42,719 nucleotides of DNA, taken from NCBI GenBank assembly GCA_005881615.1, contig VBBR01000067.1, positions 1-42,719 on the forward strand, given 5' to 3'. This document shows positions 12,252 through 12,374 of the stretch, one piece after another. The DNA comes from Candidatus Bathyarchaeota archaeon. GTDB lineage: Archaea > Thermoproteota > Bathyarchaeia > 40CM-2-53-6. Within the stretch, counting starts at the first letter, position 1, and each line of letters opens with the position of its first letter. Position numbers and translations under genes: made by a program. The notes under the pieces are model-generated. The model did no database searches. It was not told the DNA's origin and saw only the letters and a program-made list of their open reading frames with translations.

Positions 12252-12266
12252 TGGTGCGGCCGCCGG
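12252..12266. repeat. 15-bp direct repeat, tRNA-side copy (candidate att site)
   Basis: Identical to 2339-2353 in the same orientation. This copy is part of the intact tRNA-Gly 3' end, and the accessory Rhs island lies between the two copies, as expected if integration regenerated the tRNA end on this side. Confidence 0.5.
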
Positions 12267-12374
12267 GATTTGAAGTCCCGAGCCGTTGTTTAGACGGCTT
12301 CCCGGGTCGTTGGGTTGGAAGCCCATTGGACGCTGCTCGAAGCTATGTCCTAGACCAGGCTAGACTACGGCCGC
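12252..12374 (-). tRNA. tRNA-Gly (anticodon UCC) with two probable non-canonical introns
   Basis: The acceptor strands GCGGCCG (12374-12368) and CGGCCGC (12262-12256) pair fully, followed by discriminator A and an encoded CCA (12254-12252). The D-arm GTCT/GGAC is intact. The anticodon loop CTTCCAA (12321-12315) has UCC at 12319-12317 with no intron at 37/38. Two insertions must be removed to fold the rest. One is about 19 nt (12344-12326), after base 27 of the anticodon stem; its removal restores TTGGG/CCCAA, and a plausible bulge-helix-bulge forms there. The other is about 26 nt (12300-12275), between bases 53 and 54; its removal restores CCGGG-TTCAAAT-CCCGG. The second has a strong internal AGCCG/CGGCT hairpin but no clean bulge-helix-bulge. 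The mature length would be 78 nt with CCA. A damaged tRNA pseudogene is the alternative. Confidence 0.8.

What the first reader, a model, noticed from the sequence alone, without database searches (positions are those of the whole stretch)
12252..12374. tRNA-Gly(UCC) with two introns outside the anticodon loop
The tRNA folds perfectly only after removal of about 19 nt between bases 27 and 28 and about 26 nt between bases 53 and 54. Non-canonical tRNA introns are known mainly from Thermoproteales and related archaea. The first site fits a relaxed bulge-helix-bulge; the second does not, though it has a 5-bp internal hairpin. An integration scar in the T-arm is an alternative for the second insertion.
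Basis: partly seen in the sequence, partly recalled or inferred. Interest (0 to 1): 0.65.

Follow-up and report, generated by a model that had tools for sequence, protein, structure and literature searches.

The report
Archaeal tRNA-Gly with two spliced introns
In soil Bathyarchaeota the only detectable gene for one glycine tRNA is interrupted by two tiny introns in unusual places, both with the structure the cell's tRNA-splicing enzyme cuts; this kind of intron is known from hot-spring archaea, and the finding extends it to a new group.

Summary
The minus strand of 12252-12374 carries tRNA-Gly(UCC) with a 19-nt insertion at 27/28 and a 26-nt insertion at 53/54. Removing both gives a perfect 78-nt tRNA-Gly with encoded CCA; the unspliced gene is not recognised. 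Both insertions are introns rather than scars. Intronless orthologues in another family of the same order read exactly as the predicted spliced exons. The same two-intron gene is the only UCC gene found in 14 of 18 same-genus soil Bathyarchaeota genomes. The intron hairpins covary. The T-arm intron is the better match. The genome encodes two splicing-endonuclease subunits, one catalytic with the crenarchaeal lysine loop, as expected for the broad-specificity heterotetramer. The 53/54 intron is also in tRNA-Gly(GCC). A relative in another genus has three non-canonical introns in its Gly(UCC) gene. Non-canonical tRNA introns, including ones at 53/54, were already known, so this is a new member of a known kind in a lineage for which I found no report. 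Splicing itself was not observed.

The parts
12345..12374 (-). Exon 1 of tRNA-Gly(UCC): nucleotides 1-27 (acceptor 5' strand, D-arm, A26, U27)
   Evidence: Sequence; ARAGORN on spliced form; matches intronless orthologues
12326..12344 (-). Intron 1, 19 nt, at 27/28. Its GUCC pairs with exon GGAC (22-25); bulges AU^A and AA^U; short GCU/AGC hairpin
   Evidence: absent in G024/G029 orthologues
12301..12325 (-). Exon 2: nucleotides 28-53 (anticodon arm with UCC, variable loop, T-stem 5' strand)
12275..12300 (-). Intron 2, 26 nt, at 53/54. Its CGGG pairs with exon CCCG (48-51); bulges GG^A and AC^U; hairpin AGCCGU/ACGGCU
   Evidence: covariation over 22 distinct introns
12252..12274 (-). Exon 3: nucleotides 54-76 (T-loop, T-stem and acceptor 3' strands, A73, encoded CCA)
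12381..12425 (-). Conserved upstream stretch (AATCGTAAGGCAGAAAAGAC...), probable promoter region; function inferred only
   Evidence: Conserved in the same-genus alignment

Best explanation
The locus is the working and only detectable tRNA-Gly(UCC) gene of a soil Bathyarchaeota archaeon. It is transcribed as one precursor. The heterotetrameric (alpha-beta)2 tRNA-splicing endonuclease recognises a relaxed bulge-helix-bulge at each insertion: exon 22-25 GGAC with intron GUCC, and exon 48-51 CCCG with intron CGGG. It cuts after the second nucleotide of each 3-nt bulge, and a ligase joins nucleotide 27 to 28 and 53 to 54. Shown here: the sequence anatomy, conservation, covariation, intronless orthologues and endonuclease genes. 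Inferred: transcription, cleavage, ligation and their order.
For: Spliced form is a perfect tRNA-Gly(UCC), unspliced form is not recognised. Same-order genomes G024 and G029 have intronless genes reading GTCTAGCCTGGTCTAGGACATTGGCCTTCCAAGCCAACGACCCGGGTTC[A/G]AATCC, identical at both predicted junctions. Fourteen of 18 same-genus genomes each hold exactly one UCC gene, and it carries both introns. All 12 distinct 27/28 introns keep the 4-bp H helix while their inner sequence drifts. All 22 distinct 53/54 introns (UCC and GCC genes) keep H and bulge spacing, with A-U to G-C swaps on both sides at three hairpin pairs (shuffles reaching the observed pairing: 0, 0 and 1 of 2000). The genome has two PF01974 genes. 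The alpha protein's closest solved relatives are tRNA-splicing endonucleases 3p1z and 2zyz (from A. pernix and Pyrobaculum, from memory); its Tyr/His/Lys triad aligns with them, and so does the loop lysine K44 that confers broad specificity (PMC6379350). The second protein is more divergent and lacks the catalytic His motif. Several other tRNAs in the genome are interrupted, e.g. Gly(GCC) at 37/38 plus 53/54.
Against: No RNA data. Predicted lowest-energy precursor fold forms BHB1 (-50.2 kcal/mol) but not BHB2: the intron's CGGGA pairs with the 3' T-stem strand, and forcing BHB2 costs about 7 kcal/mol, or 5 after intron 1 removal. The outer helix is weak at both sites, so neither is a strict hBHBh'. 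The genomes are incomplete MAGs (this one 89%), so a missed intact UCC copy cannot be fully excluded.
Confidence: 0.94

Rival explanations
1. The 53/54 insertion is an integration scar of a mobile element in the T-arm, and the gene is a pseudogene.
For: tRNA genes are common integration sites (PMC3218864). About 98-125 bp of 3' flank is shared with other tRNA-Gly genes in relatives.
Against: The insert is spliceable, sits at the same phosphate across the genus, in two related genera and in a second family of the order, keeps a covarying hairpin, and is in the only UCC gene found. The mature sequence shows no decay.
Confidence: 0.03
2. The introns are real but lie at slightly different nucleotides, because short repeats allow sliding.
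For: Short repeats such as GGGA occur near intron 2.
Against: At both sites sliding by one base breaks G53/T54 or the 27-43 pair. The 3-nt bulges fix the register and the intronless orthologues fix the product.
Confidence: 0.02
3. The gene is a chance fold or an assembly artefact.
For: The genome is a fragmented MAG of 193 contigs.
Against: Seen in 14 same-genus assemblies.
Confidence: 0.01

Closest known systems
Non-canonical BHB tRNA introns of Thermoproteales (Pyrobaculum, Thermofilum)
   Same: Short introns with BHB or relaxed HBh'/hBH motifs, up to three per tRNA, 53/54 among the listed sites, (alpha-beta)2 endonuclease with CSL (PMC4090602; PMC3218864; PMC6379350)
   Different: Found here in soil Bathyarchaeota. 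27/28 and 15/16 are not among the sites named in the PMC4090602 text (the list ends 'etc.' and its figure was not readable). The introns conserve position and H helix while hairpins drift.
Non-canonical tRNA introns of Thaumarchaeota (tRNAscan-SE 2.0 model set)
   Same: BHB introns outside 37/38 in another archaeal lineage outside Thermoproteales (PMC8450103)
   Different: Separate lineage; the paper's main text does not mention Bathyarchaeota.
Intron transposition between isoacceptor tRNAs in Thermoproteales (Fujishima et al. 2010, as cited in PMC4090602)
   Same: Near-identical introns at the same site in different isoacceptors: the G007 Gly(UCC) 53/54 intron differs by one base from that of the G013 Gly(GCC) gene
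   Different: Here the neighbouring exon is also identical, so gene conversion is an equally good cause.

Membership tests
Archaeal BHB tRNA introns (relaxed HBh' class) | Removal restores a cloverleaf with all conserved positions | tested here: met
   ARAGORN calls tRNA-Gly(tcc) only after both removals
Archaeal BHB tRNA introns (relaxed HBh' class) | 3-nt bulge, 4-bp central helix, 3-nt bulge around the splice sites | tested here: met
   Both sites, and all distinct introns in relatives
Archaeal BHB tRNA introns (strict hBHBh') | Stable outer exon-exon helix | tested here: not met
   At most 2 outer pairs read from the sequence; hence filed as relaxed HBh'
Archaeal BHB tRNA introns (relaxed HBh' class) | Intronless orthologues match the predicted splice product | tested here: met
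   G024, G029
Archaeal BHB tRNA introns (relaxed HBh' class) | Cleavage by splicing endonuclease, with spliced tRNA and circular intron in cells | not testable with these tools
   No RNA data
(alpha-beta)2 splicing endonuclease with crenarchaeal loop | Two PF01974 subunits, one catalytic with loop lysine | tested here: met
   assembly as a heterotetramer inferred
Mobile-element integration scar | att repeat or decayed tRNA at the insert | tested here: not met
   Insert is a conserved covarying intron in an intact gene

The most novel reading that the evidence does not exclude
A clade of soil Bathyarchaeota has, apart from the hyperthermophilic Thermoproteales, accumulated many non-canonical tRNA introns, at 53/54 and at 27/28 and 15/16 (sites not named in the review text checked). 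The T-arm intron spread between glycine isoacceptors together with the 3' gene end.
Probability: 0.4. Interest if true: 0.55.

Novelty: new member of a known kind. Interest (0 to 1): 0.42.

Why it matters
Multi-intron tRNAs are mostly described from hyperthermophilic Thermoproteota. Finding them conserved across soil Bathyarchaeota tests whether heat or endonuclease type drives intron gain, and the intronless sister genes place the gains within one order. Practically, these tRNAs are missed by ordinary scanners, so Bathyarchaeota tRNA sets in databases are probably under-counted.

Tried and rejected
ARAGORN and Rfam at gathering score on the raw window find nothing. I considered a split, trans-spliced tRNA in relative G014, where the gene stops 2 nt into intron 2. 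The candidate 3' half on contig C41 turned out to be a complete tRNA-Gly(CCC) with its own introns, and no separate UCC 3' half was found, so I leave it as a deletion or misassembly. An apparent inverted repeat between the upstream flank and the D-arm (CTATGTCCTA / TAGGACATAG) is not conserved in relatives and is probably chance. My automatic intron caller was reliable for the Gly genes but not for every tRNA (e.g. L006, L011, L012), so I give no genome-wide intron count. One pattern search failed because its gap was a base too short and was rerun.

Full report
Observation. The tRNA lies on the minus strand, 12374 down to 12252. Its exons are GCGGCCGTAGTCTAGCCTGGTCTAGGACAT, TGGGCTTCCAACCCAACGACCCGGG and TTCAAATCCCGGCGGCCGCACCA. 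Between them are 19 nt (AGCTTCGAGCAGCGTCCAA, after nucleotide 27) and 26 nt (AAGCCGTCTAAACAACGGCTCGGGAC, after nucleotide 53). ARAGORN calls the joined exons tRNA-Gly(tcc) with all stems formed, and finds nothing in the unspliced form. Raw scans of the window with ARAGORN and Rfam find nothing. A whole-genome RF00005 search gives 26.1 bits, just under cut-off.

Organism. Exact-pattern hits with names are mostly soil MAGs of Candidatus Bathyarchaeota for the intron-bearing form. The window is contig C53 of a 2.23 Mb assembly in 193 contigs, 89% complete.

Splice motif. Archaeal tRNA introns are cut inside two 3-nt bulges separated by a 4-bp helix; in the relaxed HBh' and hBH forms one outer helix is missing (PMC4090602). 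At intron 1, exon 22-25 GGAC pairs with intron GUCC; the bulges are AU^A and AA^U; the inner hairpin is GCU/AGC. At intron 2, exon 48-51 CCCG pairs with intron CGGG; the bulges are GG^A and AC^U; the inner hairpin is AGCCGU/ACGGCU. A program that listed every 3-4-3 intron candidate and ranked them mainly on the resulting cloverleaf chose exactly these two. Random shuffles of the inserts reach the same quality in 0.02% and 0 of 200,000 trials.

Relatives. Fourteen of 18 same-genus genomes carry this gene with both introns, and each has exactly one UCC gene. Among the 12 distinct 27/28 introns the H helix is always paired while the inner sequence drifts; the covariation there is weak because the first two hairpin pairs never vary. 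Among the 22 distinct 53/54 introns (UCC and GCC genes), H and both bulges are kept, and three hairpin positions swap A-U and G-C on both sides (0, 0 and 1 of 2000 shuffles reach the observed pairing). Those counts do not correct for shared ancestry. In the same order, G024 and G029 have intronless UCC genes whose sequence equals the predicted spliced exons across both junctions. G027 and G037 keep the 27/28 intron plus a 37/38 intron and lack the 53/54 one. The 53/54 intron occurs across the genus, in two related genera of the family, in five genomes of another family of the order and once in a distant family. So the two introns have separate histories.

Other glycine tRNAs. Gly(GCC) has introns at 37/38 and 53/54. 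Gly(CCC), read in three relatives, has introns at 15/16 and 37/38. G018, another genus of the same family, has a 161-nt Gly(UCC) gene (before its 3' ACCA) with three non-canonical introns, at 15/16, 27/28 and 53/54, its first H helix having one mismatch. In the home genome several further tRNAs are interrupted. I did not produce a reliable full count.

Enzyme. The home genome and nearly all same-genus genomes encode two PF01974 proteins. The catalytic one is closest to the solved endonucleases 3p1z and 2zyz (A. pernix and Pyrobaculum, from memory); its Tyr, His and Lys align with theirs, as does lysine 44 of the Crenarchaea-specific loop. The review states that (alpha-beta)2 enzymes process relaxed motifs efficiently and that this lysine is needed for the broad specificity (PMC6379350). 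The second protein is more divergent and lacks the catalytic His motif. That the two form a heterotetramer is inferred.

Weak points. The predicted lowest-energy fold of the whole precursor forms the first motif but not the second: the end of intron 2 pairs with the 3' T-stem strand as a decoy T-arm, and forcing the splice motif costs about 7 kcal/mol (5 once intron 1 is gone). This follows from the intron's CGGG repeating the T-stem sequence. Standard energy rules ignore tertiary contacts and protein. No RNA evidence exists here.

Comparison and novelty. Non-canonical introns, relaxed motifs, several introns per tRNA and the 53/54 site are all known (PMC4090602, PMC3218864, PMC8450103). My open-access searches for such introns in Bathyarchaeota found no report, but most subscription papers are not in that library. 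I file this as a new member of a known kind.

Noticed in passing
L046/L063 (G018:C8 about 32246-32406, minus strand): tRNA-Gly(UCC) in a relative of another genus has three non-canonical introns (15/16, 27/28, 53/54) and none at 37/38.
   Followed up: partly
L062 (G014:C38) 5458-5578: In G014 the UCC gene stops 2 nt into intron 2 and is followed by an Rhs-like gene; no other UCC T-arm was found there. Looks like a deletion with short shared sequence (GGAA) or a misassembly.
   Followed up: partly
window 12130-12254, minus strand: The 98-125 bp directly 3' of the tRNA also follow tRNA-Gly(GCC) in G008 and tRNA-Gly(CCC) in G014, and sit inverted upstream of the UCC gene in G013. Suggests movement or gene conversion of tRNA-Gly 3' ends.
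   Followed up: partly
window 3962-10825, minus strand: 2287-aa protein with RHS repeats (PF05593) downstream of the tRNA in transcription direction.
   Followed up: no
L020 (G000:C2) 1461-1578: tRNA-Pro(CGG) with two predicted introns in the D-arm, one at 15/16 with a perfect GTCC/GGAC helix.
   Followed up: partly
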